Assembly (NCBI GenBank): GCA_030247885.1 | Contig: JAPDRO010000004.1 | Span: forward strand, 868,001-932,000 | Reading direction: 5' to 3' | Length of the DNA: 64,000 nt | Origin: Taxawa tesnikishii (nom. ined.) | Taxonomy: Eukaryota > Ascomycota > Dothideomycetes > Dothideales | Shown: positions 122 to 50,773 of the stretch, piece by piece | How positions within the stretch are numbered: position 1 is the first letter of the stretch | Layout: the number at the start of each line of letters is the position of its first letter | Made by a program: the position numbers and the translations under genes | The notes under the pieces: model-generated | Databases searched by the model: none | What the model saw: only the letters and a program-made list of their open reading frames with translations | What the model was told of the DNA's origin: nothing

Positions 122-1980
122 ATGAAGCGGTTCACAGCAGGTCTGCTGAATCGCACCAAGAGTATGCGCCCGCTGTCACTCATGCCACCAGAAGCACAAA
201 CTGACAGTTGTACGCAGGCCAGGATGATAGCGCTCCCGGTCTAGACTCCCCAGAAGCGAGTGCCGCCAGAGGAGTGGTGAGTGGCCAGAGAAGCTTCCCA
301 GTATATACGGCCACGACTGACACCACGGGCAGCGGCTCTTCTGTGAGTCGGCCTCGGAAAGCCAATCCGTACGCCCTCTAGAATCCAATGCCGTTTGCCC
401 TACCTTTGACGTGTAATGCAGGGCGAAGAGGTGCTCCATCTCCCAGTCATTGTCGAAGCCGCCGAGTCCAGTCCTCAAGCAGCAGCATCCGCAGCTTACC
501 AAATACGAAAGTTCCTCTCTAAAGAGAACAACAACCGCTCCCACGTACAATACAACGCCATCATGCTCATACGTATCCTTACCGACAATCCCGGCCCGAC
601 CTTCACTCGCAACCTGGATCCCAAGTTCGTGGATACCGTCAGGAATTTGTTGAAGAACGGGAGGGATCCGAGCGTGCAGCAAATACTGCGCGAGACGTTG
701 GATGCGCTGGAAGCGAACAAAAGCTATGACGAGGGACTGCAGCCGCTTCTGTCCATGTGGCGGGCTACAAAGGGCAGCAAGGCCAGCATTTCTCCTAATC
801 CACGCGCCCCGCAGAACTTCCGCGTGCCAGCATTCAACCCGAACGCTCCTCCTATGCCTCCTTCGCAACGGGCGTCAAACCAGCAGTACTTCACACGATC
901 TCAGTTGCCGCCGCCTGGCGAGCTTGCATCCCGCATCGAGGAGGCAAGGAATACGGCCAAGATCTTACTACAGCTCATCCAGAGTACACCGCCGGAGGAG
1001 ATATCGAACAACGAACTGGTCAAGGAGTTCGCAGAGAGGTGCCAGGGCGCGCAAAGGAGTATGCAAGAATACATCAACTGCGACAACCCGCCGCCAGACG
1101 ACGACACGCTGCAGACGCTGATCGAGATCAACGAGCAGCTCAGTCTGGCAGCGAGTCGACACCAGCGAGCCATGCTTTCCGGGAGAAGAGTCGTGGGTGC
1201 GCAGAGTGGTGCGCAGAATGGTACGCAGAGCCCGAACCTGATCGACGTCGGTGGGAATTCGAACAATGGCTACGGATCAGTGCCCCAACCACCGCCACGG
1301 AACGAGTACCCGCAGTACCCGACCCAGCAGCAACCCTACAACGCCTTCGACTCGGCACCTCAGCAAACCTATAATGCATTCACCCAATCTCAGCGCCAAC
1401 CCGACCTCAGTAACGCAAATCCCTACAGCCACGAACAACCTACACCTCAGCAACAGACGTACAACGCTTTCACCAACACAACCCACAGCCTCTCCCCGTA
1501 TCTCCTCAGTCCTCTCATGAAGAGGACTTCGCCCCTCCACCAGGACCTCCACCCTCCATGACCGCGCGTCTTCAGTCCCGCACCTCCCCGCCACCAGCGC
1601 CCGCTCCCCGGCATCCCGAACCGGCCTCCGATCCCTTCGCGGATCCTGACCACGATGCCGTCGCGCCCCCGCCCGGCCCACCGCCGGGTAAGGAGCATAT
1701 GGCTGAGTTATCGCACCCACTGGAGCCGAGCCATTATGGATTGGATGACACCCGTGCTGGCACCCGTAGCCCGCAGAGCCCATCGCGTCCGGCACTCGGC
1801 GCGTATCATCAGGGCGCTACGCCGAGCTATGTCGGACGCCAGGCTAGCGCGGTCAATGGGCTTACGATGCATGGCGCTGTGGAGTTGGATCAGGATAGTA
1901 GGGTTGAGAGGTTGGGTGGATGGGATGAGGGTAGGAGAGGTGATGCGACTGGCGCGGTGCATGAGGTTTATAGGTATTGA
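122..1980 (+). CDS. VHS/GAT-domain trafficking adaptor (LSB5/GGA-like)
   Basis: Four exons can be read: 122-161, 218-276, 333-368 and 422 onward. The three introns keep frame and join MKRFTAGLLNRTKS through RLFCESAS to GEEVLHLPV, a classic start for fungal GAT proteins. A short helical VHS-like region (about residues 45-150) is followed by a GAT helical bundle (about residues 190-290, IEEARNTAKILLQL onward), which in this family binds Arf GTPases, ubiquitin or actin-patch partners at endosomes or the plasma membrane. The tail is Gln/Pro-rich with three YNAF repeats. Near 1482-1497 the frame must shift by one missing base to reach the conserved PPPGPPP tail that ends at 1980. A very short intron is the alternative, but it would delete a YNAF repeat. 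The family is fairly certain; the exact orthologue is not. Confidence 0.85.
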
Positions 1981-8131: not shown

Positions 8132-8745
8132 CTTGGGATGGACCTCGGTAGTGGATGAGCTGAAGCTCGGAGAAGGGGAGGTTTTGGAACGATTCTCGTA
8201 TACAGTGTTACATGCAGGACTGTGTGTGTGAAAGCCTAGATGATCGACTGAACGCGTCACTTTCAAATGGGAAATGCGCGACCGTGACAAAGCGTGCTGT
8301 GTTGGCGTCCTCTGCTATCTCTTGTCGACTAATCTCGATATTGCTCTTGCCCTGCTCGGAGGTTCTTCGCGAGTGCCGGTGTTGTCGAGGTTGTCGAGGT
8401 TGTCGAGGTTGTCGCGGGTGTATGTGTTTCGGGTGTTGTGAGACAGGAATGGAATGCAACGAAGAAACGACAATGGTCACGAGTGTGGCACGAGAATGAA
8501 GCCGGCAGGCAGCCCAGGGCTGGGCTGGGCAGCGGACTTTAGTTCCTCCGATCCCCGCAATTCAACGAGCATGACGCTCGCGATGAAGTTGACATGAACT
8601 TCCATCTCTCGTTTGTAGTTCTGATATTTCGATGTTTGCAGCAGCTGTTCGCACGTGAGGCATCGGAGTGGCTTTTCATCCTCAGTTCCATACGTAACCC
8701 CTGAACTCGTCAGCCATCTCCAACAACACCACGATATCTTCCAAC
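8132..8745. promoter_or_regulatory. Divergent promoter region, acidic protein / CSN7
   Basis: This 614-bp gap separates the 5' ends of the minus-strand acidic-protein gene and the plus-strand CSN7 gene, so it must carry both promoters. It contains a 9-bp tandem repeat (8382-8417). Confidence 0.6.
8382..8417. repeat. 9-bp minisatellite (TTGTCGAGG, about 4 units)
   Basis: Three perfect units and a degenerate fourth are visible. It lies within the likely 5' leader or promoter of the acidic-protein gene. Confidence 0.85.
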
Positions 8746-9675
8746 ATGGAGCAAACGCGTGCCATCAACGCTCTAGCACCCTTCCTCGCCCTCTCCAAAT
8801 CCGCAAACTCCCCCGCGCAGCCGCCGACCTGATCTCTCAAGCTACCGCAGCGCCCAATACTTACGTCTTTGCCGAGCTCCTTCAGACGCAGCCGGTTCAG
8901 GCGCTCCGCAATGAGCCTCAGTATGCAGGCTACTACAAGCTGCTCGAGATCTTCGCCTGGGGCACGTGGGAGGACTACCAGGGTAACTCACGCTCTCCCC
9001 GGCGTCCTCTTTGCAAATTCAATGCTTGTCCATAGGGATTGTGAAGGCTGGAAGCCCAACGATCACCGCTAACCTTCCATAGTCGCAGCAACAGCAACAA
9101 ACACCACACTCCCTCCTCTAACCTCCCCACAATCTACCAAGCTGCGCCTTCTGACACTCTTGACGCTCGCCGCTCGCGGCAGCGGCGTCAATCTCAGCTA
9201 CCCTTCCCTACAAACCGCGCTCTCGCTCCCCACGTCCTTCGACCTCGAGCAACTCGTTACAGAAGCCATTTACAATAACCTACTGACAGCAACTCTGGAC
9301 CCGCATCACCAAACCGTCATCGTCTCCTCCGTCGCACCCTTGCGGGATCTCGCCCCAGGAGCCGTGGGCTCTATGATCGCTTCTCTGGACGCCTGGAGCG
9401 CGCGCTGCGGCGCTGTGGCTGAGGATCTGGAGGCGGAGATTGCCAGAGTGAAGCGAGAGGCCAAGCGGAGGGCTGAGGCACAGGCGTTAAGGGCGCAGGA
9501 ATTCGAGCAGGCGACTGAGGCGGTGGGCAAGCAGGGACAGGTGTACGGTGGCGGTGGAGGAAACAGATTGGGCGGGGACGATGACGGTGAGGCGATGGAT
9601 GTGGATGATGCTGGTGGGAGGGGTAAGAGGAAGGCGGCTCAGAAGGCGGCGGCGGGGTTCTTTAGGCAGAGGTGA
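8746..9675 (+). CDS. csn7: COP9 signalosome subunit 7 (PCI domain)
   Basis: Exon 1 runs 8746-8982 and exon 2 9083-9675; the intron 8983-9082 is in phase 1 and joins TWEDYQ to VAATATN. The start MEQTRAINALAPFLALSKSANSP, the middle NTYVFAELLQTQP and the YPSLQTALSL/LEQLVTEAIYNNLL region are typical of CSN7/CSN7a. There the PCI domain packs into the COP9 complex, which removes Nedd8 from cullins. A C-terminal coiled coil (EDLEAEIARVKREAKRRAEAQ) and a Gly/Asp-rich tail follow, as usual. At 8810-8814 the frame breaks: one extra C in this C run gives the expected NSPRAAADLIS. As printed, the ATG frame stops after about 29 codons. Length after accounting for this is about 276 aa, normal for the family. 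Confidence 0.9.
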
Positions 9676-13950: not shown

Positions 13951-15122
13951 ATGGCAACAGTCGAGGGCCACTGCGATCCCCGCTTCGCTCAGCTCAAAGC
14001 TCTCCTAGAAGAGCAGCTCGCCTCGGGCAACGAGCTGGGAGCCTCCATCGCCATCAACATCGACGGAAAGAACGTCGTTGACATTTGGGGGGATATTCCG
14101 ACGAAACCCAAACAAAGCCATGGACCAGAGACACCATCACCAACGTCTGGTCCTCCACAAAGACCATCGCCGCTCTCGCCGCTCTGATCCAAGTGAGCAG
14201 GGGCAAACTCGATCCCGACTCACCAGTGTCCAAGTACTGGCCCGAATTTGCCCAGAACGGCAAGGAGAACGTGCTGGTGCGCCATTTCCTGTCTCATACC
14301 TCGGGCGTCTCCGGTTGGGAACCACCCATGACGTGGGAGGAGATCTACGACCCCAAGCTTTCCGTGGAGAAGCTCGCAAAGCAGGCGCCGTGGTGGGAAC
14401 CCGGCAGCGCGTCCGGATACCACGCGGTCGACCAGGGCCATCTCATCGGCGAGTTGATCCGGCGAACGAGCGGGAAAACGATGAAGCAGTTCGTCGCCGA
14501 CGAGATCGCCTTCCCCTTGTCTGCAGACTTCCAGATCGGCGCCCTGGAGAAGGACTGGCCGCGCATCGCTCCCGTGGTCCCTCCGCCACCCGCGGCGATC
14601 GACTTCTTCTCAAAGTTGGACCCGAACAGCGTGTCCTTCAAGACGTTCGCCAGTCCGCCTTTGGACGCCACGCGGGCGCACACTCCGGAATGGCGACGTG
14701 CTGATATGGCTGCCGTCAACGGGCACGGCAACGCGAGGGCCTTTGCTCGCATCTTGTCAGCAGTCACGCTCGGCGGGACGGTCGATGGCGTTGAGCTCCT
14801 CACTCCCGAGACCATTGATCTGATCTTCAAGAAACAGAGCGATGGGACGGATCTGGTGGTGGGAATCCCCATGACGTTCGGCATAGGCTATGCCCTCACC
14901 AGCGGCAGCATGGTCCAGACTGCGCCATGGCTACCTTCGGGCAGAGTCTGCTTTTGGGGCGGTTGGGGCGGCAGTACGCAAATCATGGATTTGGATCGTA
15001 AGGTGACATTTTCCTATGTCATGAACAAGATGGGTGATGGCATTGTTGGATCGGACCGGACTGAAGCGTACGTGAGGGCTGCGTACAAAGCTCTGGGTGT
15101 GGAAGAGGGTTCCAAGCTTTGA
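13951..15122 (+). CDS. Class C beta-lactamase-family serine hydrolase (EstB-like esterase)
   Basis: The intronless gene starts MATVEGHCDP and encodes about 390 aa. It carries the family's active-site SxxK motif as SSTK (about residue 70, in NVWSSTKTIAALAAL), a Tyr motif in SGYHAVDQGHLIGELI (about residue 160) and a C-terminal GGWGGS in place of the KTG box. Such proteins include esterases, transesterases like LovD and D-aminopeptidases; no signal peptide is visible, so a cytosolic location is likely. The substrate cannot be told from sequence. At the six-G run 14087-14092 one further G is needed to pass from VVDIW to GGYSDETQTKPW. As printed the ATG frame ends early. There is no neighbouring cluster to hint at a secondary-metabolite role. 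Confidence 0.88.
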
Positions 15123-15248
15123 CTAGACAAGCGCACTTCATGTTGTGAAGAGACGATGAAGACTCGGTACGTGATGGGCAAAAAGTGCTTCATAGGTATC
15201 CCGTCTATGCTTCTTGAGTGTCATGATCATCCTCTCTCTCACTCGCTT

Positions 15249-18200
15249 TTACCAACCCTCGCCTCCACCATATCCACCGCCGTATCCGCCGCCTCCCTTT
15301 CTGTAACGCCTACGCTCGCCATACCCCTCTTCCTCGCCGAACCCGCCAGGCATCTGATCGTTTCCACTTCCATAGCCGCCATCACCACCACCATACTCCT
15401 GGCGTCTCTCGTAGCCACCACCGTACGGGCGCTCCTCTTGCTGGTGACCACCTCCTCCGTAGCCCGGTCTCTCCTGGCCGTAACCGCCACCGAATCCCTC
15501 ATTTCTTCCCTCGTAGCCGCCGCCGCCGTAGCCTTCGTTCCTCCCTTCGAAGCCTCCGTACGCCGGTCTCTGTTCCTGCTGCTCGTAGCCGCCATGATGG
15601 CGACCGTATGCCTCCTCTCGACCTCCGTACTCATGTCTGCGCTCCCCGTGTTCCTCTCTACCGCCTGGGAAACCGCCCGGCATACCATACTCCTCCCTAC
15701 GCTCATGCTCCCTGGAGTGCCTTCCTCCGTGCTCCTCCTCCCTTCGCTCCTCATCGCGACCGCCATAGTGCTCTCTCCTCTCATGCTCATGCCTGTGCTC
15801 CCCTCTGCGCTCCTCCTCCTCTTCCTCACGTCTCTTCCTCTCCTTCTTCTCCGCCTTGGCGCGACGCTTGCGTTCCTTCTTCTCCCAATCCCCGTCATCG
15901 TCCGAATCGTCATCGTCACTCTCATCATACCGACGGCCGTGGTGTCTCTCTTCACTCTGATGGAAATCACCATGGCCGCTGACGCGCTGCGTCTGCACCT
16001 CACTCTCCCACTTTCCGTCCGGTCTGTCCCAGCGGCGCTCGCTGCGCTGCTCGTATCCGCCGCCGCTGATCGGACGCGTCTCGACGGATTGCTCGAAACC
16101 GAATCCTGTGCGGCCGTGGGGACCGTCCTGTTCGAAGCGCTGGTACTCTTCTCTGCGTGCACCGTCGGGATACCGCGTTTGCTTGACCTCGGCCTGCCCA
16201 TAGCGCTCCTCTCGGCCATAACCTCCGGGTCTGTGGCCCGTTTCAGTGACGCGGCTGGTGTACGAGCCGTCGGGATTGTAGCCCTGGTTCTCGAACGTCT
16301 GAGTCTGCGCTCCGCTGTTCTGACTGAAGGCATCGCCGAGCAGTTCAGCGCCGACGCCTCCGATTAGACCGCCAACGATACCACCAAGAGCGCCGCCACC
16401 TACGGCTTCGGCGGCCAGATTGCCGACTTGCTGCGCCGCCTGTGCGCCGGGCTGGTTACCGTAATGCGGGCGCTGACCACCGGGCGAGAAAGCATCGTTA
16501 AGACCGCCCATGATGGCCGCGGCCGCAACACCACCAGGAGCACCAGAGGAACCAGCAGTGCGCTGGTTAGGCAATCCTATCGGCTTTCCGCACCCGTGGC
16601 CTGAATCGTGCACGCCTTCCTTGTGATTGCGGCCGTGCTCGACACCGTCGCGGGAGAGCCTGTCGCGGAGGTCGTCACGCTCTCGCTCGCTCCTCTCGCG
16701 CCACCATTGCTCGACGACGCCGAACATGAGCATGCGTCCGTCCCGGGCGCCGTCGTCACCGTATTGCCGCATTGCGGGGTGGTGGAACACGCCGTTGATG
16801 ATGCGATCTAGGGTGCGGTCGACGTCAATGCGTTCGTCATCCCAGCACTGGACGATTTGAGGGACGACCCATTTGAGCACCTGGCTGGCTACTTTTCCCG
16901 CGGGCTCATTGAGGATGTTGCTGAAGTGGTCCTTCGAGAGCATAGAGTGCGTGGGATCCGTCGAGTCGTCATCATGGAAGACGATCAGCTGTTCGTTTCT
17001 CGAGCTTTGAATGACCTCCGAAGATCCGGTCGCGAGCTCCGTCTTCACCTGCTTGATGATGGGAACGACGAAAGGGGCGAGAAGCGAGAAAACGAAGACA
17101 CTCAATTGCTCCGAAACCTGCTCCACGAGGTCAGGCAGAACGGGGATCTTGTCGATGGTCTCGGTGATTCCTTTCATGATCTCATCGTGGAATTCCAAGA
17201 TTGGATATATCTGCTTGGTGAGCTCATCAAGCTGGCGAGTGAACTCCTCTGGCTCCTTTGGAGAGATGTTCATATGCTGCATATGGGCCGCCGTAGCGTT
17301 CGCTTGAAGCTCGTCTGCCTTGCCGGCCTGATCGTTGTTGCCAAACAGTCCGTCTGGGAGGGAGCTCAGCAAGTTCTTCAGCAGACTGACATCCTGGCCC
17401 TGTGCCTGCTGAAAGGTGCCTTCCAGTTCTTGAATCTCTGACTGCGTAGTCTTGTCCGAAAATTCTCCCATGACAGAGTGCAAAAGTCAACACCGCCAAA
17501 GGTGCCAGTGATGATTGGATAAACAGGTCCTCGTGCACCACGGATGTGGACACGAGTGTTGCGGCCAACGTGAGGGAAAATGTTATGCTCTCCCATCTCA
17601 ATCAAGGCCAATTCAGTGTAGTTGGAGTGAGCGGAGTAATCCTCCAGGCAGTGACAGCCAGTTCCCAGAAGACGAAGAGCTTCGTAGAACTCAGCCTTGT
17701 TGCGCGTCCGGCCGTAGTCTCGACCCAATTGAATCGCACGGCCAAAGAGGTTCCGGACCAGTCCCGCAGAAGTTGTGATTCCCACATCCTCAGTCGCAAT
17801 GTAACGCTTCAATCCGGTTCTCTCATCAATCGTCAGTTCTCTCTTCTCGTCCACGGGGCCTCTCAGACGCCTATCGTATCGTCTCGCGTCCTCGTTATCG
17901 GCATAGTTGCGTGGGTTGTCAATGTGCTCTTCCGGACGATAGCATCCCAGTCTATCTCTGGTAACCTCAAACTCTCCGGTCCCGTAGCCAAAGCTCAAGA
18001 ATCCAAGGACCCAGAGAAGGATCCGGATTGCTTCGGCGGAAACGTACTTGACGGTTCCGACGTCTACAGCTTGCGAGTAATCGCGGAGCCAGTTACCGAA
18101 GTAGACGCGCTTGACGTCGAGTTTGGAGAACTTGCCGCCGTGACCGTAGGCGCGGGAAGTGAGAAGGGTAAGGAGGGTGTCCTCGATATCGCCATGGCGC

Positions 18201-19941: not shown

Positions 19942-20847
19942 AATGTATCTTCCTGGCAAAGCACGGTTGAGCGCGCCTCGTGATAGGCACCGTTGAAGCC
20001 ACTATGTTCTTCCGTAGCGACTGAAAGAAGCGTCACAGGAACAAGCGTGCCGAAGGGTAGTCTTTCCGCTGAGGAGATAGCAGTAGAGAGCAGTGGTGAC
20101 GGAAGCGGGACCATTGAGCGTAGCCAGAACCCGTTAGTAGTATCCTTGGAGTCCCCCGAAACATCCATCAGAATGGATACTCACCTGGAAGAAAAAGAAG
20201 GCCGAAGCACCCGTCCTCAACCATGATCGGAATCGAGTAGAACCGCTCGTGCATCAAAGCACAGAAGCCGAACGCCGCGTATTGCACTCAAGTGTCGCGC
20301 GTGCCTTGCACGCACACACAATCTTCGCGCCAGCTCCCATAGAGACACGACTGCCGAGACAGCATGCTCTGAATTTTCTGATGCCGGACGCAGACGCTTT
20401 CGCGTCAGACCCTCACGGGCAGTAGCCAGAGCTTGCGACTGTGACTCTGAAGGAATCAGGGAGAAGCAAGATGGCGAAAAGTTGAAGATTACTCCGAATT
20501 TCCCATTTGCTTGTGAGGACGAGAATCATGAGGGATCTGTCTGTTTGTGAGCAAAGAAACGCAGCGTGTTGAGGACAGGTGCTTGGTAGAGGAGAGGAGG
20601 AAGGTGGGAGCTTGAGAAGTGACGCAAATAGAGCTGTGGACGCACGGACCGCGGGCTTCACGTAGAACGCCAAGCAATCGTTCGAAAGGAAGGGCGGATG
20701 ACGATCAGTACGGGATAGGAATATATTGAAGATACTATACACAAGAGCCTCAGCGGGTATCCGAACATTCTAACCGAAACTCCACAGTCCCAATGCCGCC
20801 AAATGCATATGCACGCATGAGTTCCACAACGACAACAAGCTCCTCCA
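19942..20847. other. Intergenic between convergent genes, nothing seen
   Basis: These 0.9 kb hold the 3' flanks of the dioxygenase and ACR3 genes. No coding or repeat signal is apparent. Confidence 0.55.
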
Positions 20848-24892: not shown

Positions 24893-24924
<32 letters not shown>

Positions 24925-26984: not shown

Positions 26985-28910
26985 ATGTCACTCGCAAAGT
27001 GTCTGGTCTTGTTGCTCTGGTTGCCACTCGTCATCGCGGACAACGTCGCTGATTCGAGATACGACCCCTCGGACCCGGAAGCTTGGGAGACTCGCTTCGG
27101 GTCATATCCATACCAAACCTTTAGGTCTGACAATTTCACTGCTCCCGTCGTAAGGACTCCAGTTAAGTCATCTCAATGTCACGACGACCGTTATGTCTTT
27201 CTATCTCCGCGAGGTGACAAGGTGGAGCACCCGTCTGTCATGATCCTTGATAATCAGGGCGAACTTGTCTGGCAGAATTACGTGCGCGGCCAACCGTACA
27301 ACCTTCAAGTTCAGGAGTACAAAGGCGAGAAGGTGCTCACATTTTGGGTCGGTGATGACGCCGTGGGTGGACATGGCGAAGGAGTTTATCACATTGTAAG
27401 CTGGAAGAAACGCACAGTGCCTGTCCATCGTCACCAGGTTGTTAACAAGGAGGCATAGTATGATTCAAAATACCAAGAGGTTGCAAAAGTCTCCGGTACC
27501 GACGGCGCGAGACCTGATTTGCACGAGTTCACCATAACACCCGAAGGTATACAACAACCCGATCAGGTTCCATCAGAGTCTGACAACCCTTCCAGGTACC
27601 GCCCTTATAACGATCTACCAAATCGGTGCCGTCAAACAACCTGGAATTCTCAGGTTCGCGAACACGGTCTGGATATGGGATTGTCTTGTCCAAGAGATCA
27701 ATCTCTCGACAAACTCGGTCCTCTTCGAATGGCGTGCCTCGGAACACCACACCCTCAACGAATCTTATTATCCCCTTGCCGGTGCCGGATACACGGCCGA
27801 AAATCCTTACGATTACTTCCACGTTAACAGCGTGCAGAAAGACGACCTCGGCAACTATTTGATATCCGCGCGATTTACATCTACGGTCACGTACGTGGAT
27901 GGCAAGACCGGAGAGATCCTCTGGGTGCTCGGTGGTAAGAGGAACGGTTTCCATGATCTGAGCACCGGGCCCGAAAAGGCGACGAACATGGCATACCAGC
28001 ACTACGCACGGTTCCACTCGCTGGAGACGTTTCCGAAATTTCCGGCTAAAGGGGTCGTCGTGGCGACGAGAGAGGTGTGACAAGACGGCTCCTCACGGCC
28101 TTCGACAATGTAGAAGACAAAGAGGTGGAAACGAGGCCCTCGAGAGGCGTACTCATCGAACTCACCTATCCCGCCACCGCCCCCGCCTCCGCCTCCGCAT
28201 CCACACCTTCACTTTACACGGCCCGCCTGCTGCAATCCTACACGCACCCATCCGCCTTCGTAGCCTCAAGCCAAGGAAGCCTACAAGTGATACCGCAAAA
28301 CGCCAGCGATCCGCACATCCTGATCGGGTACGGACGCGTAGGCGCTTGGGCCGAGTTCTCGGCCGACGGGAAGCTGCTCTGCGACGTGCGGTTCTCGACC
28401 GAAGCCTCCTTTGGCACCGGCCACGTACAGAGCTACTCGGTCCTCAAGGCGTTCTGGCAGGGCCGTCCCGTTCATCCGCCCGCCGTCGTCGCCTCGCCCG
28501 CCGCGGACGAGGGTGCCTGGCGCGTCTCCGTCAGCTGGAACGGCGCCACCGAGGTGCGTGGGTGGAAACTCCAGACGCGCCGCACGGAACGAGATGGCTG
28601 GGCCGACGCGGCCACGGTCGAGAAGCGCGGCTTCGAGACGGAAACGACGATCGAGGCCGTTCCGCAGCGAGGCTTCGTACGCGCCGTTGCTCTGGACGCA
28701 GAGGGCGGCGAGCTCGGCAGCGCGAGCGCAGAGCTGCGGGTCAAGGACCACGGCGCTGGCCTTCGGGGCTCGTTGCTCGCGGCCGCCGCTGCGCTCGCTC
28801 TCATCGCTCTTGTGCTGGGCAGGAGGAAAGTCAAGAGGCTTTTGTCAAGGGACAAGGGCTCGGGTCAGGCTTACGAGATGCTTCCCAACGAGCCAGGGAA
28901 ACATGTTTAA
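26985..28910 (+). CDS. Arylsulfotransferase-type (ASST) secreted/membrane protein
   Basis: Three exons (26985-27395, 27459-27546, 27596 onward), with introns 27396-27458 and 27547-27595. ATG 26985 gives a clean signal peptide (MSLAKCLVLLLWLPLVIADN); an in-frame ATG at 26931 would bury it. Family landmarks are SPRGDKVEHPSVMILDNQGE, DLHEFTITPEG, EWRASEHHTLNESYYPL, DYFHVNSVQKDDLGNYLISA and GKTGEILWVLGGKRNGF, the repeated blades of the fungal arylsulfotransferase_2 propeller. The C-terminus has a Fn3-like stretch, a membrane segment (LLAAAAALALIALVLG) and a basic tail. So it is probably a type I membrane protein with the propeller in the lumen or outside. Activity in fungi is unproven. One base is missing at the G run 28051-28054; otherwise the frame ends after REV. 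Confidence 0.85.
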
Positions 28911-29831: not shown

Positions 29832-31394
29832 TCATAGTTCCAGCTTTCCACCACTGGACAGCACGTCAGACGGCGACCGCTTCTGGTCCTTATCGACGGA
29901 GATGCCACCGTTGGCCAGTTTATCAGTGGAGCTGATGTAGACCCATCCTCTAACTCCTTGGTCCTCCAGAATGGCCTTGTCGTCCTTGGTATCTTCTTCT
30001 TCACCCACTTCACGATCCTCAGTGCTGGTGTTCGCAACCTCAACATCATTCTCCCGGAGCATCTGCAACACAGCTCTCATGTTGAGCTTGAGTACGCGCT
30101 CCGGCTCCATCGCCTTGAGGAACCGGCTAGTGACCAAGGGGAACAGGATACCGAAGTCGCTCTGGCTGAAGTGCTGGCTGCCTTTGGGGTAGAAGAGGTA
30201 TGGGTTCGGATTTGGCCCGTGATAATCCCGTGGAGGGGCAGTGGCACGCTTAGCGTCGTTGAAGTTGCCGGTCCAGTTGTAGAAGCCTTGGCTGAGAATG
30301 CTCACGATGGATTTACCGCCCTGGCCTCCTGAGGTGAAGGATGGCATTGGGCGCCGCCAGAGCCAGTCCTGTCCGGGGCTGCGCAGAGGCAGACACCACA
30401 AATCAAGCAGTGCCACGGGCGTGGATGATGTTATTTGCCTAGAGATGGGAGATCCTGGTTCTGGTGCGAACAAGGGCTTGACATCCTTCGGCTTCTCCTT
30501 GGCATAGAAGACCGACTTTGAGAATTGAACCGTAGTGGCTGCACCGAAGCTGTGTCCGGCGAAAGTGATCCGGCCTGGCTCGTGCACGTCGAGGCTGTTG
30601 GCAAATCTTGCGAGCACATCTGTTCTCTCTTTCTTGTCGTAGGATGTGTTCTCATCCAGGTTTTCCAGCTTCTCGCCCTTGTCCATGCCAATCACTGCCG
30701 AGTGTGCAAGACCCAACTCCCACATTCTAATGCGCAATTGCTTGTCTCTTCCTTCGTATACTTCCGGCGATGGCGTATGAGGCATCTTGACCACATCGAT
30801 AATCTGGCTTTCAGTCTTGTCCGTAGCCCGCACATACTGAATAGGCGAGCTGCCATCCCTATGATCCATAGCAATGACCACCAATCCATGCGAAGACAAG
30901 GAACCACAGATATGCGAGTACATATTGCGACTCCCAGCTAAGCCGTGCGAGAATACCATGACCGGCCATCTCTTGTCGTGAGTAGGAGCAGTGAGGAGGG
31001 GAGCGTTGCGGTGGGCGGGAATGTTGATGTAATAGGCCAGGTGCGAAAACAACCTGTAGTTCCCGTAAGTATGTATTGGTCCTAGATCAGTTGCCCATTA
31101 CTCACGAAAAGATCTCAGAATAGCGCGAGCCTGCGCCCATAAACCTGCCAAAGGCGCTCACAGTCGCCTTTTGCGGTTGCGGTATCCAGCGGACAGGCCG
31201 GGAAGAGGCGGACTGATTCTCGCATGGGTAGAATATGCGAAAGGCGACTGTGGGGGAGCGGACTCTGGTGCAGGGCTCTGCGACTGCGATTGCAGCTGAG
31301 CGGCGGGTATCTCAACATCTACTGTGCCAACTTGATACGGCCCAGAGTAATCTGGGAAGGCCGGTATTGGACTGAGTTTTGAAAACCAAGACAT
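29832..31394 (-). CDS. PAF acetylhydrolase-type phospholipase A2
   Basis: Exon 1 (31394-31106, MSWFSKLSPIPAFPDYSGPY) joins exon 2 (31053-29832) through intron 31054-31105, giving EIFSLFSHLAYYINIPAHRN; total about 503 aa. The alpha/beta-hydrolase core shows WPVMVFSHGLAGSRNMYS, MDHRDGSSP, and the nucleophile elbow GHSFGAAT (GxSxG, about residue 290). These are hallmarks of plasma/intracellular PAF acetylhydrolase II-like enzymes that cleave short or oxidised acyl chains from phospholipids. The C-terminal part is Glu/Asp-rich. An upstream in-frame ATG at 31511 would add a hydrophobic leader (MHFPTASLFSFLFACLSLL) and possibly make it secreted; which start is used is open. One base is missing at the G run 31252-31256, between PESAP and TVAFRIFYP. 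Confidence 0.88.
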
Positions 31395-36323: not shown

Positions 36324-39300
36324 TCAAGGCCTCCCTCTCTGCGCACCCAGTCCGACTCCTCTCTTAGCCATCAAACTTTGTCTGACAATCATCTCCGCCG
36401 CAGCCGCAGCAGCCAACCGTTCCTTCTGACGACTGCGATCCTTCAGATACCGCTCCGCTTCAGGTCTCATACGCAGAATCCTGAGAATCATGTCGTCGCT
36501 CGGATCAGCCTGAGCCTCTTTCCTCTTCTCTTCTTTCGCTTTCTTCATCGTGCCAAGGTTCCTGGAGAGCATGATGCTCTTGCTGCGTCTAGTGCTTGGC
36601 ATGCCCATGAGGCCTGCAGCGCCGCCAAAGACAGCGCCGCCGGCGCAGAGAGCCGGTTAAGCTCCTTTTGCTGTGCGGCTTGCTGTTTGGCGGCGGTGGC
36701 GGTTGCCATTGCCTCGGAGGTGCGGATGAGGTTCTCGGTGGATTCGAAGTAGAAGAAGTTGAGGTTCTGTAGGTCGTGGTATTTGGGGGATTTGAGGATG
36801 TCGAGAGGAACGCCGTTCGCTTGACCTGTTTCTTCGTCCACGGCGTGGAAGAAGTCGAAGAGCATCTGGAAAAGACATGTTAGTGTTCGTTTGTTGTGAT
36901 GCTGATGCCATGGCTGGGTAGGATTCACCTGCAGCCACTTAAACACAACATCAAGCTCTTGCTGGGTGAGCTGCTTTTGCTGGGACAGTTTGTCGGAAAG
37001 GGGAGGAACTAGGAGTGACTCGATCGTCACCAGTACTTCCTTCCATATCCGCGTCATGACCATAACCATGGCAGAGTCAGTAAGCGTATGTTTCATGATG
37101 GCGAAGTTATCGTCAAAGTATGTGAAAAGCGGCTTGAGCGCATTCGCAATGTCTGCCTGGGTCAGAGGTTGGGTCTGGGCGATCGACAGCGGTCTGTTTC
37201 TCTGGAAGTACCCCCGTACGGATGATTGTACGGATGATATGGATAGACCGTGTGAAAGCAGATTGCGGAGAGCTCGTCTCGACAGACACTGCTGAATATA
37301 GGCGGAAAGCTATTGATGCATTAGCATAATTCTTAAAGTACAGCTCATACGATACTCACCTTGTCCGTAATCTTTCTGGTCATGTCTCGCTCCGTACGTT
37401 TGAGCGTCCGGAAAGTCTTTCCAAAATAGAACTGAATATCGTCCCTTTCACCTTCCATGCTAACTCTCAGTAGCAACCTGCCTTGAGTGTCAAGATCCAA
37501 CCAAAATTCCCGCGGCATGTAGTCGCTGAAATGTGATGGATCGAGCTTGAGTGAGGTCCGTCCGACACAATCGTGATCACCTAGAGCATCCCAATCCCAG
37601 ATCGTCGCGATGATGTTGAGTGGACCTTGGGTGCTGATGTCTACTGTCTCATCCCAGCGTGGGTTAAGATTGCCGTAGACAATTCGCGTCTTGGCCAACC
37701 GCTTTTGGTACTCGTCACCAAGTACGACGTACGGGTCGCTAAGACCGTTCATGTCGCAGGGCTTGAGATCTTCCGCTTCGATGATCTTGATAGTGAAGAC
37801 GAATTTGTTGTTCTGTCGGGATCTGTTCACAGCGGGGAGTATGTCTCTGGATGACTTCTGCGCAGGCGTCCACGTTGATCTCCCTTTCGAGCTTGTCGAG
37901 CTGTAAGGTAGCGTACTCGATATTGTTGAGCTTGACCAACGACTACCGTTGCTGTTAGCATACCGAAAATGATTGACGTTCATCTCTTACTCACCTCAGG
38001 CAAGAACTGGAATGGCTCGATTTTCTCCTTGTTTGCCCAAGTATCTTTAGCCATCTGCATCCACTTCTCCTGTCTGGTTCTTCGAACCGCTGCTTCTTGC
38101 TCTGGAGTCAAACGATCCATTTCCCTTGCAAACTTTTGCTCCAACATCTCACAATATCTTGCGATACCATTTCCAACAGACTTTGAGAGCGCAGTCATGA
38201 ATTTTGCATACTGCAAGTCATCATCCCACTCAAGCTTCACAATCTGATCTATGCTCTGGGTGAAGGACCTGAAAATATCTACTGCAGAGACACTGTGGCG
38301 CTCATCGTCTGTAGGAATGTTGCCCTCGTGCTCCGTCCGGACGGTGAAGTTGTCTTGTTTGACGGCGCCCTCGACCCAGTCAATGACTTTCGCATCGGTC
38401 ATGTAGATCCATCGCCAAACGAAGTCAGCCAAAAGATCCTCTACCTGGAAACCGAATTCTACGCCAGGGAGTGCTTGGGCATGTACTCGTCGTATCTCGA
38501 CCATCTCCTTGTAGAGATCGAACCCGTCTTGTATTGGTACCTCATCACCGCGGTTCTTGACAAGCTCCATGATTCGAGAGACAAGATCCCTTGCATCGGC
38601 GGCGTACGCCGGGAGCATCTCCGATACGAGTATCGACAGTGGATTGACGCCCATAATCTCCGGATTTTTGCGATACCGTTTCTGGATCTTCTCAGCAAGC
38701 GCGAGTACAGCCTTCCCAAGCTGAATGACATGGTAAAACTCCCAGGTCTCAGCATCGTCAGGAATGTTCTTGTGCACCAACTCATTGTAGGCGTCTCGTG
38801 CCTTCTGTCGAAGTGCGTCTTGAAGAGCGTCAGAGAATTGGTCCAGGTCCTCCGGTGTCCTGTTGAACAACGGGTCGTCGTATATGTGATTCTCCAATAT
38901 GTACATTACTGGACCAATGGAAGGTGGTTTGTTCTCGTAGCAGTGTTGCAAAAGATCAAAGAGGTCGCGCAGAAGGGTATCGTGAAGCGAGGAAAGGATG
39001 GTTTGGTTCAGAGCGTAATCTGCAATAGTCCACTTGCTCCTATCGAAAAGCGAAGCCTGTACCACCAAGCTCGCCCGGTTGCCCTTCTTTCCTTCAACAG
39101 GAGGCTCTTTAATGAACATAAAGGCAGCGTCCAAAGTATCCCGATCAATTTCTTGGTTTTGAAACTTCTCCCTAATAACGTCCATAAAAAGGACCAACCG
39201 TGAGAACTGCGGTAGCCGCCATCTCAACGCAATCTCGTTGAGAAGTTCAGTCGATTGTTTGGAGAAGAACTTCATTGGCGGCGCATCTCCGTTTGGCTCA

Positions 39301-40636
39301 GACGGTTGCAGAGTAGCGTCCAGCATGTCATAGCTGAGTACGCGCTTGAGTACGGCTCGATAGTATGCCCGCGGGTCTGGCGGAACGAACGTAAACGGGA
39401 CTTCTTCGCTGATCGATGCTCGTGGTGAGCCGTTGAGATTCAGCGCGCTCATGTCAACGGGTTGGTCGATCACATAGGACGTCTCCAAACCTGTTGTCTC
39501 CGACATTCTCCTTGCCATCTCCGAGTAACCAGACTCGGACGCCGCTGCATTTGAAGGTTTGAAAGTTGGCAGACTACCGCCCGGTGTGCTCTTGGCCAGC
39601 TCAGGGTTAGACTGAACAATGGCAAGCATCATTTGGGATAGGTCTTGGACTTCCGCCTTCTTCCAGAGTTCGTAGCCTTCCTGCAAATCAAAGTCTTCGC
39701 TACTGAGAGTCCTCCTGGAATTGAGACTAAGATGCGTCTGGTACAGTTTTAGGTCCTGCAAAGCTGCCTTCTCCGTCCACACAGATTTGTTCGCGTTTAT
39801 GTCAGCTTGAACCTGATCATAAGAAACATCGAATATGTGTGCGATTCGCATGACGAAGGGCATATCCTTCGCTTCGTAGCTCCGTGGAACTTCCACTTCG
39901 ATGGTCGTACCACCGGCGCCTCCAATCCTCTGAGCGGCATCGGCAAGGTCCTGGTCGTGCTTCAAAAGTTTGCTCTCCAAGGTCTGAAGCCTGCTGGCGA
40001 GTTCTGGACGATCCTGAGCCCACCCATTGCTCTTCATCGTGGAGCTGATAAGACGGACGAACAGCGCAACATGACGGTCGACCATGAGCTTCCAACTATC
40101 GTCATCTGGCGCCTTGCCTTTTGCAGTTCTGATGTTGCCCTGGCGTAGAAGATCAAGAGAAGGTCCTCCACTCTGCGGTCCTTCTCCATGGACTTGCGGA
40201 ATGTAGGATTCTTGAACTCATTGAGAAACGTGGCAAATGTCCGTTTCACCAGGGCATCGTTGTACTCGGGCATCCGCTCTTTCCCAAAAAGTACCCCAGT
40301 AATACGTTTGTCCAGTTCTGACACAAAGCCGTGTGGAAATCTTGTGCTCTTGGAGTCCCGGATAAGAGAGAAGTCCTTCACCAGATCGTTTATCGAGGTG
40401 GAAGATCGCGAGACGTTGGGTTTTGCCGGAGCAGGCACGTGTTGGACTCTGCGGGCGCGGGGCTGGAGCAGATACGAGAGGAAGGCGACCCGCAGGGCGT
40501 AAGAGTAGGCATCGTGGTCGGAAACAGGTGGGTTTCTGCGCGAGTAGGAGAACTCCCGGTGCAGGCGGCCGTTTTGCTGGATACTGTTTACACGGCGACT
40601 GTTGACTGAGGAGCGTGACGACACCGGCGTGGACAT
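36324..40636 (-). CDS. ync13: Ync13-like Munc13-homology (MUN) and C2 domain protein
   Basis: Introns at 37943-37994, 37310-37359 and 36866-36928 connect a protein of about 1,290 aa. The order is: a Ser-rich N-terminus (MSTPVSSRSSVNS), MUN homology with MHD1 (from DDSWKLMVDRHVALF through EWDDDLQYAKFMTALS), a C2 domain (FVFTIKIIEAEDLKPCDMNG, SDPYVVL, NPRWDE, WDWDALGDHD, the Asp ligands of calcium/phospholipid loops), then MHD2 (DDNFAIMKHTL onward) and a basic tail. Fission yeast Ync13 has this layout and helps exocytosis during septum formation. Three frame breaks are seen: T run 40119-40122 (QKGKAPDDDSW), the C/G run at 37834-37837 (needs two bases added or one removed), and near 36632-36640 before GLMGMPSTRRSKS. 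Confidence 0.9.
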
Positions 40637-41069: not shown

Positions 41070-41144
<75 letters not shown>

Positions 41145-41545
41145 CTCTCCAGACCATCCTATATCACTTTGCTCGACCTCGCTCGAATCTCCCAAGAAGC
41201 GCGTCACCGCTCAGCCTGTAAGGCAACTGCTTGTTCGCAGAAACATCTCCAGGTATAGAGACGCGCCATGCATTCACGTCTTTTGACCCAACGTCTTACC
41301 TTTCCTTAACCTTCTCATCACACCCATTCACCTCAACCCATCATCTCTCGTTGATCACATTTCCTGCTTTTCGTTTGACAAACAATTTCGCTTCCAGCTC
41401 GACAAACAGTTCCTTCTTCTAGCTCGAGGACTGGTTATTTGAAACTTCGCTCCCGCGTCGCTCCCTCCACGCATCGCCGGTTGCTCGACGCTTGCTCTGC
41501 AATCGCAAATCGATCTCGATACACTCCACATACAAATCCTTCGCC
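40637..41545. promoter_or_regulatory. Divergent promoter region, ync13 / bHLH, with long (AC)n
   Basis: The region separates divergent starts. It contains a dinucleotide tract of about 68 bp at 41075-41143 and a pyrimidine-rich leader before the bHLH gene. Confidence 0.6.
41075..41143. repeat. Long (CA)n microsatellite
   Basis: About 34 uninterrupted CA units, the longest simple repeat in the window. Confidence 0.97.
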
Positions 41546-41875
41546 ATGTCGATGCCACACGAGAAGCCCCGGCTCTCGGAGCAGCAGAAGAAAGAAAACC
41601 ACATTGCTTCGGAGCAGAAGCGTCGTCAAGCAATCCGCGAGGGGTTCGACCGGATAGCAGACATCGTTCCAGGAATGAAGGGGCTCGGCCGTAGCGAGGC
41701 CGTCGTGCTACAGACGACTGTGAAGTTCATGAGGGAGCAGATCGCACACAAAGAGATGCTGAGAGCAAAGGCTACCAAGGAGCTGGGTATAAGCAACAGC
41801 GACTTCGAGTCCATGTACAAAGAGGAGGCGGAGAGAGGAGCGCAGAAGCGATCCGGACTGTCCTCTGGCCAGTAA
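41546..41875 (+). CDS. INO4-like bHLH transcription factor
   Basis: This is a small intronless protein of 109 aa starting MSMPHEKPRL. The basic region shows ENHIASEQKRRQAIREGF with the His, Glu and Arg-Arg positions that read CANNTG boxes. Helix 1 is FDRIADIVPG, followed by a loop with GLGRSEAVVL and helix 2 TTVKFMREQIAHKEML. This pattern (SEQKRRQAIREGFDRI) is that of fungal Ino4. In yeast Ino4 pairs with Ino2 to switch on inositol and phospholipid genes; in filamentous fungi partner and targets differ. The protein is nearly only the DNA-binding domain, so it probably acts as an obligate dimer partner. The leader is long and C/T-rich. Confidence 0.82.
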   Translation: MSMPHEKPRLSEQQKKENHIASEQKRRQAIREGFDRIADIVPGMKGLGRSEAVVLQTTVKFMREQIAHKEMLRAKATKELGISNSDFESMYKEEAERGAQKRSGLSSGQ

Positions 41876-45384: not shown

Positions 45385-48300
45385 ATGTCTTCCGCCGACA
45401 AATTGGACGGTGCGGATGTTGACGCCCAGGACTTCCTGAAGAGCGTGAGCGAGATGAGAGAGAAACGCCTCGCAGAGGACAACGAACGATATCACAAGCT
45501 GGAGGAGCAAGTGCTGCAGGACAGGGAAGCCCGATTGGCCAGGCGAATGGAGCGCGAGAGGTCACTGAGCCCGGAGAAAGGAGACCTATCAACAACACCT
45601 CTCTCGCTCCGCTCCCAACGCGCTGGCACCCCACGAGCAATGACTCCCTCGTCGACATTCACGCCACATGGTGAAACACTTGCTCAAGGCGCTTCCACTC
45701 CATTGAGTAAACCCTCCTCGCCTGCGCTCGCAACAACGGCCGAGCGACCGTCCAGCCCACTGAAAGCCTCACCGAGCGCAGCAATACCCACCCGCTCAAA
45801 CACCCTCTCATGGCAACAAAGACGCCCTCAATCTGGCAGTTTACGTGGAAGGCCTCTTTCGATGGTTGCTACGGAAAATAGTGCGCGCTCCCCACAGCGA
45901 GCGACTTTCAACATGCCTGTGGAAGGGGAAGAGCCATCAAGGAAGCAGATTGCAGAGGCATTGGGTAGCAAAGACCCCTCGTGGTTCAGACAAACTGAGG
46001 ATAGAGGCTTAGGTTCGGCAGCATTCAGACGGAACAAGGAAAATACGACGGCAGAGAACTCGTCCACTAAAAGACACCTGCCAGGCCTAAGTAAGGAGTC
46101 GTCTGAGGATGCAATAGACCGAACGAGCCCACCACCAGAAAGTTCGCAGTCTATCTCTCCGTCAAGACTTGGGTCGGTGCGGGACAGCGCCGGGCTGAGC
46201 AGCAGATTCTCGACAGCAACCTCTGTGTCTGAACAGAGCAAATCAGAAGACAAGTCTCCGTTCCCCTCCTCAGACTCTCATCGGTTTGCGTCCTCGGGAT
46301 TGGAACGACCAGCGTCGATGGCTTCATTCGACGGCGAACAGTCCAGTATTGGTCGAACGATGTCTTCGGCGCAGAGCCGCATCGCAGCAGACAGACCCCC
46401 TCACCAACCAAAGGCATGGGAGGCTTTGTACAGAGTGCTATGCTTAAGCGCACCGACAGCGTGAACAAGAGATGGAGCGCTCAACCCGGAGCGAGCTTGA
46501 GTAGGCAAAACTCGACAGCGAGTGTCATGAGCGGATACGGCGGTCTCAGGGACGGGCTTCCAGGGATTGGTGCATCGCGCACGATGCCAGATTTGAATGG
46601 TCAGGCCACTCTTCGTCAGGACAACTCTACTGAGCCCAATTCGAGGCCTGGCTCGAGCCACAGCACGATTAGCAACCTCACTTTGACGCAAGAACCGAAC
46701 GTGAAGGATCGCTTTGCCCGACCTGCTCTACCACACGCCCACAGCCGTTCGAAATCAGTGGCTTCCTTGCGTGATCCGCCTCTTCTGGAGACCTCTGCAG
46801 AAGGAGAGAATCCTATCTCTCCACCCTTGAGTCCTTCCAAGCGGTTCTCTATCAGATCTCGTAGTCCTACAAAGTCAAGCTGGTTGGAAAGTGCGCTTGC
46901 CAGGCCTGACTCGCCGCAGCTCAAACCCGCCACGTCCACCCAGCCTGAATGGATGGCCAACATCAACAAGACGAAACAGCAGCGAAATAGTGCAGAGTCT
47001 ACTGGCTCGCAAGGAGCCAGTGATGCAGAGATTATGACTGCTACTGCGAAGTCTCTTTCGGCTAAGCCTGTCAAGGTGACGCCGAAGGAACCGGTGGCAT
47101 TTGGCCAGAGCGTGCTCAAGCGGTCCCCCTCGAAAGACCTTAGTAACGATCCGAAACGGTCGATCACTCCGCCAACCAAACCAAAGCCATTGATCAGTCA
47201 AACCCTGCCAAAGACGCCTGTTCTTGAACAGGGACCTGCAGACGTGGAAAAGCCTCCCCAGGTGGATGTCGAGGATAGAGGTGCGAAGTCTCCAGCTGCC
47301 GGCCTCAGTCCTTCAATATCGCACTCGGCCAAATCTTCCATCACATCGCCATCTCTATCGCTCACCTCGCCAAAACCAAAGCCGGAGACACCGCCGAAGA
47401 AAGACTTTCGCGCTAACCTCAAGCCTCGACAAATCAATGTAGAAGCTTCAAAGAGCGATGAGCCAGAGTTCAAGAACGTTTTTGGAAAGCTCAAGAAGAC
47501 GCAGACCGAGAAATACATGGCACCCGATGAGCTCAAGAACAACATCTTGCGAGGCAAGTCGGGGTTGACGGTGACTGGAGGGCCGCAGAAGACAGAGCGC
47601 AGAGACGAACTCAAGGAGAGCTTGCTGCAAAAGAAGGAAGAAATGAAGGCCAAGGCTGCAGAGGGTGGATCTGAACACCAACGAAGTCTTTCATCTGTCA
47701 AGACGGAGGCGCCAGCATTACCTGAGGCACTGCAGATCAAGAAACAGCTTGGACGATCCGATAGCCTGAAGCCTTCAAATGCCCCGGCAAATGCTCGAAG
47801 GGACGTCACTCCAGAGGCGCTTTCACTGCACCGGACCTTGAGAGGGAAGCCAAAGCTGGAGCATCCACAGACGGGAGACAGATCGCCTGTCGAGCAAGAG
47901 AAGAAGGAGCCGCCCCTCGAGAATACTAAATCGCCTTCGGAAACGGAGAAGCAGGAGCCATTGCACAAGGTTGCCACATTTCCGTTGACTCATGAGGAAG
48001 CATCGCAGCCTTTGTCTCGCGCACCGAGCGACGCATCTCTCAAGAAGGTCTCTTCAGCATCCGAGGCCGAAGGGAAATCGACGCCAGTATCCAATAAGTT
48101 CGCAGACCGTTTCAATCCCGGCCTTGCAGGTCTTCTCGCGCGCGGCCCGCCGCCACAGGCCAGTCAGTCGAACACTCCTCGTTCTGTGAGCCCTGCAGGT
48201 GCAGCAGTCGCTGGTTGTCCTGCAGCAAGCGATGAGACTGGTGAGGGTGTTACTCTTACGCACATGACCAAGAGTCGTGCAAAGGGGCCCAAGCGGCGCA

Positions 48301-50773
48301 AGCCTGGTACTAAGGAGAGCAATCCTGAACCAGGTCTTGTCAAGACCGCTACTGTGCCAACAGGTATCAAAGTAGAGAAGCGGATATCTGCTCAGCTTGT
48401 TAAGTCAAACAACTTCTCGCCCAGCTCGCCTACGACGAAGATGCCACTGCAACCCGCTCCAAAATCTGCTGCCGTCAGAGCAGTTTCACTGAGCATGTCT
48501 CCAGCGCCTGCGGAGAAGGAGAAGCCAATCACACCGACTAAGTCATCATCGCTCTCGTTGAAGGCTAGCCCCAAGCTTGCCTCAAAAGAGGAGCAGACCA
48601 GCCAACCTCCCTCCCCGGGGATGCCTGCGCCTTCGTCTGTGGCTCGCAAAGACTCCAGTCAAGTTCGCCGATTCCCTACCGAATCAGCGAAATCCGCCGC
48701 CAGCATTGATGCGGCCACCGCTACTCCTTCCACTGACTCACTAGCCGTCAAGAGTCTGAAGGCTACGGAGCCATCCGATGCGAACAAAGAGAACGCAAAC
48801 TCTTCTGTGAAGAATGTTGCCGCTCTATGGGGCAAATCGGTACCGAAACTCGAGCCTCAAAAACGGGGTTCACCTATCCCACTTCCTACAAAGAAGGACG
48901 AAGAGGCTGCAATGAAGGCTGCCGGTCTGCTGTCAACCTCTCCGATGAGGTACAAAGGCTCCCCAGTTTTAGGCCTGGGCATCTCGTCCAAGGAGCTACC
49001 AAAGCCGCCTGGGAGGGTTGCGACGCCAACGGGAAGCGCAGGCTTACCTCCTAAGCCACCAACAAAAAGCTCAAGGGTTGTGAGTGGAGCACTGCAAGAG
49101 CGATTTGGCTCCAAAGGTATGCCACATTAACCTCGTTCAGCGCATCATTTGCCGCCATCGAACTGCAAGATGTGTCTCTTTTTACTCTTCCAACATACTT
49201 ATCCGTTCCGTCTCTGATTCATTCCGCATAGTCTAAACCTCTCTCTCTGCGGTAGACCAACCGAACCGCAAAGCTAATATGCCCTGGTTCAGACCTACCT
49301 CTTCCGCCGCTTCCATGCCCCTTGACCGAGACAGGACGTCGGCTGGCTGTGATGTTTGGTGAACTGCCCATATCGAATAGTCACCTGGACATTGATACGC
49401 AAGCGGTGCTGGCTGCACGCCAAGACGATACGAGCATAACCAAGACATTGCGCAAGACGATCCAAGAGATTTCGGGAGACGGCAAGTTGACCCCGTTGCC
49501 TGCACAGGAAGAACACGTTTTGTATGAGAGTTGCATGTATATCTGCACTCACATCTTCGGCTCTGCAACCGGCGCGAGGATGACCGAAGTCTACCTCTGG
49601 GCTGGCGCTGGCGTCCCTGAATCGTCAATCGAGGATGCGCAGCTGTTCGGCAAGAGGGTAGCGAAGGAGGCCGGTGGTGGGCAGAGGTGAGTTTTCCTGT
49701 CCTAGTACATCAAAGAATTCTACTCACTCATGCTCAGAGGTTCCCCTCCCTACTCATCATCCGTCAATCCCGCGAACCGCCAGCTTTCTTCCAAGCCCTC
49801 GGCGGCATCGTCATCACTCGACGCGGATCCCGTGCAGACGCTTCCACACGGCCATACATGCTGTGCGGACGGCCTCATATGGGTCATATCGCCTTCGACG
49901 AGGTCGACCTCAGTCTCGCCTCCCTATGCTCCGGCTTCCCTACATCCTCGCCGAACCCGTCACTCTACAGGAAACCAAGCTCTTCCTATGGAAAGGCGCG
50001 GCAGCCGGGGCCGAAGCGATCGGCAGCGCCCGTCTCATCGGCATGGACCTGAACCCGACCGGCGAAATCACCGAGGTCGACGAAGGCAAAGAACCGCGCG
50101 CGTTTCATGCCGTCTTTCCCACCAACGCTCACCGCTCCCTGTCCGCCGGCAACGACAGTGATGATTTTTGGAAGACCAACGCCCGCATGGGCACCAGTCA
50201 GCGCTCCACAGCCCGCCTGTTCAGGATCGAGGCCGCGCAGCCCAAACAGAGCGGCCTGGCGTCCTTCTGGCCCACGTCGCTGCTCTCACGCCGTCCCTCG
50301 TGGAGTGGCGGGAAGTCGCCAACGCGACCCTCAAGCTCGGCATCGAGCGTGTCAAGCCCGAATGTCGACCAGGGAGCGCTGAAGACGACGGCGAGGAGAT
50401 AGCGCCGTTTACGCAGCTCGACCTCGAGCCCGAGGGCTGTTTCGTGCTGGATGCCGGCGCTGAGGTACTTGTACTACCAGGCCCCCTCCTTCCGACGCAG
50501 GCACATGCCGCGCACATGTTCACGCAGGCCTTACTCTTCGCTCACGACTACGCCATCCTGTCCGCCAGCCTGGAAGACCGTCCGGCAATACCGAAGGCGA
50601 GTGTCGCGCTCGATGGCTTTCCCGGTGGACTCAAGTTGCTGTTCCGTAGCTGGGATGAGAGGAGGGGTGTTTGGGGCCCGGGCGCGTTGATGGCGGGGAG
50701 GAAGAAGGTCGAAGGAGAGATGTGCAGGAGAGTGGGTGTTCAGGAGGCGTTGGAGGAGTGTTGTGTTAGGTGA
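45385..50773 (+). CDS. DUF4045-gelsolin repeat protein
   Basis: A very long fungal protein (about 1,720 aa) starting MSSADKLDGADVDAQDFLKS, with a coiled coil (RYHKLEEQVLQDREARLARR) and then roughly 1,150 residues of Ser/Pro/Lys-rich disordered DUF4045 sequence. The latter includes the family signature RPPSPTKGMGGFVQSAMLKR. The C-terminus has gelsolin-type repeats: ELPISNSHLDIDTQAVL, EVYLWAGAGVPESS, AFFQALGGIVITRRG, YILAEPVTLQETKLFLWKG, and FTQLDLEPEGCFVLDAGAEV. Introns are 49117-49292 and 49687-49739. Such proteins are thought to bind actin or membranes at cell tips, from family context. Three one-base deficits break the frame: C run 46396-46400, CCC 49938-49940, and a point near 50370-50380. 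Confidence 0.88.

What the first reader, a model, noticed from the sequence alone, without database searches (positions are those of the whole stretch)
1482..50380. Frame jumps of one polarity in ten conserved genes
In the GAT, CSN7, BTB, lactamase-type, HET-C, dioxygenase, ASST, PAF-AH, Ync13 and gelsolin genes the conserved protein continues in the frame reached by adding one base. About 17 points agree and one more is ambiguous; nearly all sit at runs of 2-6 identical bases, mostly C or G. Neighbouring genes (GH55, ACR3, RGS, Rab, ARL2, GNAT, acidic protein) have none. Real pseudogenes would show both signs and in-frame stops, so homopolymer under-calling by the sequencing method is the best reading.
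Basis: partly seen in the sequence, partly recalled or inferred. Interest (0 to 1): 0.72.

Follow-up and report, generated by a model that had tools for sequence, protein, structure and literature searches.

The report
Sequencing-error frameshifts in a fungal assembly
The broken reading frames in this stretch of fungal DNA are almost certainly an artefact of a genome assembly that writes runs of one repeated base too short wherever it was sampled, and not a biological feature.

Summary
Three are confirmed from both sides by Pfam profiles that continue with no room for an intron (Het-C, the lactamase-type gene, DUF4045), all base-short.

It is not a property of this window. The same model finds 18 base-short and 8 base-extra in 200 kb from 16 contigs. 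Four base-short and no base-extra switches without intron room sit in an HSP70-type gene, a chaperonin, ARP4 and ARP3 elsewhere.

Runs of six or more identical bases are scarce: 344 runs of five but 32 of six in 264 kb (ratio 0.09; E. coli K-12 control 0.27), while a perfect (CA)34 array survives. In called coding sequence it is 100 against 2. Base-short switches fall at runs more than random losses do, and 0 of 28 has an in-frame canonical slippery heptamer.

Verdict: homopolymer under-calling in the assembly. A cap near five matches base-callers described in 2018 (PMC5889714, passages); the nanopore platform is inferred. Ordinary.

The parts
1414..1558 (+). base-short frame switch in the GAT/VHS-domain gene (overlap of the two open frames)
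   Evidence: ORFs 410-1558 and 1414-1977; model call at 1522; GAT domain E 1.2e-19
8698..8829 (+). base-short frame switch in the CSN7 gene
   Evidence: model call at 8804; CSN7 profile starts at position 12 of 32 just after it; PDB CSN7B match from the second frame only; first-frame piece matched nothing
14082..14184 (+). base-short frame switch in the Beta-lactamase-fold (esterase-like) gene
   Evidence: profile 2-34 in one frame (weak, E 0.17), 33-313 in the next, one base short, no intron room; model call at 14085
17381..17486 (-). base-short frame switch in the Het-C gene
   Evidence: profile 35-272 then 272-560, abutting in DNA; model call at 17483
28050..28077 (+). possible base-short switch in the ASST gene; an intron of about 50 bases is equally possible
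   Evidence: model call at 28064; profile 54-208 and 216-300 with 71 bases between
31161..31311 (-). probable base-short switch near the N end of the PAF-AH gene
   Evidence: model call at 31171 at penalties -7 and -5 only; profile 31-59 weakly in frame 31105-31311 (E 0.017)
36548..36656 (-). base-short frame switch in the Munc13/Ync13-like gene
   Evidence: model call at 36646; MUN domain
37742..37986 (-). ambiguous point in the same gene: intron plus base-extra, or one base-short switch
   Evidence: model call of base-extra at 37871; frames 37983-40217 and 37348-37986 differ by the base-short sign
40037..40217 (-). base-short frame switch in the Munc13/Ync13-like gene, N-terminal part
   Evidence: model call at 40144
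46233..46461 (+). base-short frame switch in the DUF4045/gelsolin-type gene
   Evidence: DUF4045 profile 3-331 then 323-685 with matching DNA spacing; model call at 46305
49662..50049 (+). base-short frame switch in the gelsolin-type gene
   Evidence: model call at 49926
50165..50399 (+). base-short frame switch in the gelsolin-type gene
   Evidence: model call at 50260; weak Gelsolin repeat after it (E 0.067)

Best explanation
The frame switches are consensus errors. The living genome has longer runs of identical bases. The sequencing and assembly wrote many runs of about six or more as five or fewer, and sometimes shortened shorter ones, wherever the genome was sampled. Each single-base loss inside an exon moves the conserved protein into the frame reached by adding one base. 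Shown here: one dominant sign, spread over 16 contigs, association with runs, shortage of runs of six or more, and breaks in conserved core genes. Inferred: that reads would show the longer runs, and that the platform was nanopore with an early base-caller.
For: 1. Sign: base-short 28, base-extra 9 over 264 kb (two-sided p 0.0026, or 0.0045 after correcting for recall), with near-equal recall of both signs in simulation. 2. Homology: of 66 neighbouring profile-match pairs outside the window, 59 have an intron-size excess (smallest 49 bases; 21 same frame, 21 base-extra, 17 base-short, so introns carry no sign). Four pairs change frame with no intron room, all base-short. Three more in the window, all base-short. 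3. Run spectrum: runs of five to six fall 344 to 32 over 264 kb and 100 to 2 in called coding sequence; order-2 and order-3 chains expect 85 and 87 runs of six or more against 49 (p below 2e-5); E. coli K-12 control 309 to 84 in 100 kb. 4. Dinucleotide arrays (CA)34, (CA)15 and (TA)12 are perfect, so simple repeats as such are not lost. 5. Position: excess of run length at base-short switches 0.25 against -0.004 for random losses; 0 of 5000 resamples reach it, also 0 of 5000 for runs of four or more, and 0.0004 for runs of three or more. Of five switches viewed and placed by eye with homology as guide, four lie at a run of four or five and one at a run of two. 6. Budget: called coding sequence lacks about 28, 18 or 8 runs of six or more (order-2, -3, -4 expectation); 28 base-short switches were called in it, 19 net of base-extra. 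7. Published: base-callers other than Scrappie capped homopolymers at 5 bp (PMC5889714, passages), and nanopore-only fungal assemblies break conserved genes at homopolymers (PMC7500977, passages).
Against: Nine base-extra calls exist; some may be true over-calls or model errors. An order-4 chain, which already absorbs a shortage at five, expects 70 runs of six or more against 49 (p 0.005), a weaker contrast. Runs of seven or more over 264 kb match the chains (17 seen, 16 to 17 expected), in intergenic DNA too (16 seen, 11 to 16 expected), and one 13-base run exists, so the cap is not absolute. There is no pile-up at five. One switch (ARP4) lies at a two-base run, and only 16% of the posterior weight of base-short switches falls at runs of four or more (background 6.6%). 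Conserved-domain homology outside the window gives 4 breaks in 83 kb of typed matches, fewer than the ab initio rate of about 0.2 per coding kb in the sample, so some ab initio calls may be false. The sign test on the four outside breaks alone is weak (p 0.125). No finished fungal genome was at hand as a control. No reads were examined.
Confidence: 0.88

Rival explanations
1. Assembly error of another kind: scattered indels from a low-coverage or poorly polished long-read assembly, not mainly a homopolymer cap.
For: One break at a two-base run, nine base-extra calls, residual long runs.
Against: Sharp fall between runs of five and six and enrichment of base-short switches at runs.
Confidence: 0.08
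2. Real deletions: the genes are decaying pseudogenes in this strain.
For: The switches are present in the printed sequence, and some of the ten genes may be dispensable (recalled).
Against: The same sign at a similar density outside the window. Breaks in genes matched to ARP3, ARP4, HSP70 and in one of nine chaperonin genes, the number expected for eight CCT subunits plus Hsp60 (essentiality and the number nine are recalled; single-copy status of ARP3 and ARP4 was not shown). Shortage of runs of six or more, in coding DNA above all.
Confidence: 0.03
3. Genome-wide programmed -1 ribosomal frameshifting lets the fungus read these genes intact.
For: The sign is the one that -1 slippage would overcome, and switches prefer runs.
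Against: 0 of 28 base-short switches has an in-frame canonical slippery heptamer (pattern recalled) in its allowed interval, with 2.0 expected by background. It does not explain the fall from runs of five to six in introns (30 to 1) and intergenic DNA (214 to 29). I know of no such genome-wide use in a fungus (recalled, not searched).
Confidence: 0.01

Closest known systems
Homopolymer truncation by nanopore base-callers described in 2018 (PMC5889714, passages seen)
   Same: Runs capped near five bases; more deletions than expected, put down to truncated homopolymers
   Different: Here the cap is incomplete (17 runs of seven or more in 264 kb) and the platform is unknown
Nanopore-only fungal assemblies of Drechmeria coniospora (PMC7500977, passages seen)
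   Same: Conserved fungal genes broken at homopolymers in the assembly
   Different: There, after polishing, errors were more often insertions or over-long runs; here base-short switches dominate about 3 to 1

Membership tests
Homopolymer under-calling artefact | Indels mostly of the base-short sign | tested here: met
   28:9 ab initio and 7 of 7 by homology without intron room
Homopolymer under-calling artefact | Indels concentrate at runs | tested here: met
   0 of 5000 resamples of random losses reach the observed excess
Homopolymer under-calling artefact | Shortage of long runs throughout the sampled assembly, coding and not | tested here: met
   runs of five to six: 100 to 2 coding, 30 to 1 intron, 214 to 29 intergenic (264 kb of 29.37 Mb); intergenic runs of seven or more are not short
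Homopolymer under-calling artefact | Accurate reads show longer runs | not testable with these tools
   no reads held
Pseudogene cluster | Disabling changes limited to dispensable genes or one region | tested here: not met
   same sign at a similar density over 16 contigs and in conserved core gene families
Programmed -1 frameshifting | In-frame slippery heptamer X XXY YYZ at the switch | tested here: not met
   0 of 28

The most novel reading that the evidence does not exclude
A fungus whose genes truly lack runs of six or more and whose ribosomes slip by -1 at short runs throughout the genome to read many core genes.
Probability: 0.01. Interest if true: 0.9.

Novelty: not a real feature. Interest (0 to 1): 0.12.

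Why it matters
Gene counts, pseudogene calls and protein models from this assembly are unreliable wherever a frame crosses a run. The run-length spectrum together with the sign of frame switches flags such an assembly without any reads, which is useful when scanning unlabelled genomes.

Tried and rejected
A first ab initio model without splice-site scores hid most switches behind false introns and was replaced. RNase P RNA was tried as a non-coding test of run lengths; it is too divergent to judge. Ribosomal RNA as a yardstick: the small-subunit search gave no answer, and a 5.8S search found no match in the assembly. The MFS, AMP-binding and DEAD searches scored only part of their candidates (9 of 454, 14 of 75, 37 of 132), so they favour intact genes; their rows were kept in the pair count, except 33 of the 39 DEAD rows, which I judged not to be pieces of one split domain and did not type into. 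Whether the window is enriched: the sign ratio does not differ from the sample (Fisher p 0.23), and the density is 0.30 against 0.20 base-short per coding kb (difference not tested). One search for a paper naming the assembly, on contig number, size and 'fungus', held no paper.

Full report
WHAT WAS CHECKED. Its gene content and its introns, median 62 bases with a GTAAGT-like donor and CAG/TAG acceptor (the model was seeded with that consensus), fit a filamentous fungus. The species was not identified.

AB INITIO TEST. I trained a coding model on 264 kb (the window plus 20 stretches of 10 kb from 16 contigs) and decoded both strands with introns scored by splice sites and with equal penalties for one base missing and one base extra. 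At penalty -9 the window has 10 base-short and 1 base-extra switches and the sample has 18 and 8. At every penalty tried from -5 to -14 base-short leads: 61 to 18 at -5 and 13 to 3 at -14. Of 240 artificial changes, 101 of 120 losses and 94 of 120 gains were recovered with the right sign, 2 gains were read as losses, and the median position error was 5 and 4 bases. Against equal signs, 28 to 9 has p 0.0026, or 0.0045 after the recall correction.

HOMOLOGY TEST IN THE WINDOW. Open frames were searched against Pfam piece by piece. Three genes have a profile that runs from one frame into another with no intron room: Het-C, the Beta-lactamase-fold gene (weak on its N side, E 0.17) and the DUF4045 gene. 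All three are base-short. The Beta-lactamase-fold gene is closest among solved structures to an ester hydrolase, 7y3z (E 5.1e-126), so it is better called an esterase. The breaks in DUF2420, PAF-AH (between profile 59 and 75) and DUF7904 have room for an intron of ordinary size and are read as introns. ASST is undecided. CSN7 is matched only on its second side.

HOMOLOGY TEST OUTSIDE THE WINDOW. Nine Pfam families were searched in the whole genome. From the typed rows the script formed 66 neighbouring pairs of matches. The excess of DNA over profile is bimodal: 59 pairs have 49 bases or more, as introns do, split 21 same frame, 21 base-extra and 17 base-short. Seven pairs are below 40. Four of them are frame changes without intron room, all base-short. 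Two keep the frame. One, with an excess of 38, is base-short and undecided. The four are an HSP70-type gene on C3, a chaperonin on C1, ARP4 on C11 and ARP3 on C1. ARP4 and ARP3 were identified by solved structures (ARP4 on both sides of its switch; ARP3 on the upstream side). The other actin-family loci were not identified one by one, so I do not claim that these two are single copies. Leaving out one match inside a 1896-residue frame on C31, nine chaperonin loci were found, the number expected for eight CCT subunits plus Hsp60 (recalled), so the broken one is probably the only copy of its kind (inference). That such genes are essential is established knowledge, recalled.

RUN LENGTHS. The window has 72 runs of five, 5 of six, 1 of seven and none longer. 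In all 264 kb the counts for lengths 4 to 8 are 1808, 344, 32, 13 and 2. The step from five to six is 0.093 where earlier steps are 0.19 to 0.26. In called coding sequence it is 100 to 2, in introns 30 to 1, in intergenic DNA 214 to 29. Markov chains of order 2 and 3 expect 85 and 87 runs of six or more against 49 seen (p below 2e-5); order 4, which already carries any shortage at five, expects 70 (p 0.005). E. coli K-12, at 51% G+C, has 309 runs of five and 84 of six in 100 kb. It is a bacterium, so it controls the method, not fungal composition. Perfect dinucleotide arrays of 34, 15 and 12 units stand in the same window. Against the reading: runs of seven or more are as frequent as the chains expect (17 seen, 16 to 17 expected over 264 kb), and one run of 13 exists.

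POSITION OF THE SWITCHES. Within the interval where both frames are open, the posterior of each base-short switch was compared with random losses treated alike. The excess run length is 0.25 against -0.004, and 0 of 5000 resamples reach it. Posterior weight at runs of four or more is 16% against 6.6% background. The nine base-extra calls show only a slight excess (1.92 against 1.85). Of five switches viewed and placed by eye with homology as guide (CSN7, Het-C, DUF4045, ARP3, ARP4), four lie at a run of four or five bases and one at a run of two. Called coding DNA lacks about 28, 18 or 8 runs of six or more against order-2, -3 and -4 expectation; 28 base-short switches were called there, 19 net of base-extra, which is the same order.

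RIVALS. Pseudogenes do not explain breaks in core gene families on other contigs or the missing runs. Programmed -1 frameshifting is not supported: none of 28 base-short switches holds an in-frame slippery heptamer where 2.0 were expected by background, and it would not change run lengths in introns and intergenic DNA.

WHAT IS KNOWN. Jain et al. [quoted passage not shown] The Drechmeria paper (PMC7500977, passages) and a filamentous ascomycete paper (PMC9453082, passages) describe homopolymer indels that break frames in fungal nanopore assemblies; in the first, errors after polishing were more often insertions, unlike here. That the present reads were nanopore is an inference.

VERDICT. It is a property of the assembly, not of the organism, and it is not confined to the ten genes. 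The count of about 17 is higher than the 10 to 12 I can support, and the clean neighbours carry no information at this density.

Noticed in passing
window 20213-20576 (-): Nuclear RNase P RNA gene (Rfam RF00009, 41.2 bits) between the dioxygenase and the SBF/ACR3-type gene.
   Followed up: partly
window 41076-41143: Perfect (CA)34 array, plus (CA)15 at 24894 and (TA)12 at 44711; long dinucleotide arrays stand where long homopolymers do not.
   Followed up: partly
window 14082-15119 (+): The lactamase-type gene is closest among solved structures to fenoxaprop-p-ethyl hydrolase 7y3z (E 5.1e-126), an esterase of the lactamase fold.
   Followed up: partly
L018 1946: A single run of 13 G, longer than any other run in the 264 kb examined.
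   Followed up: no
whole genome G000: No 5.8S rRNA match in the assembly (39 of 883 candidates scored); the rDNA array may be absent or withheld.
   Followed up: no
window 41423-41872 (+): Helix-loop-helix protein resembling INO4.
   Followed up: no
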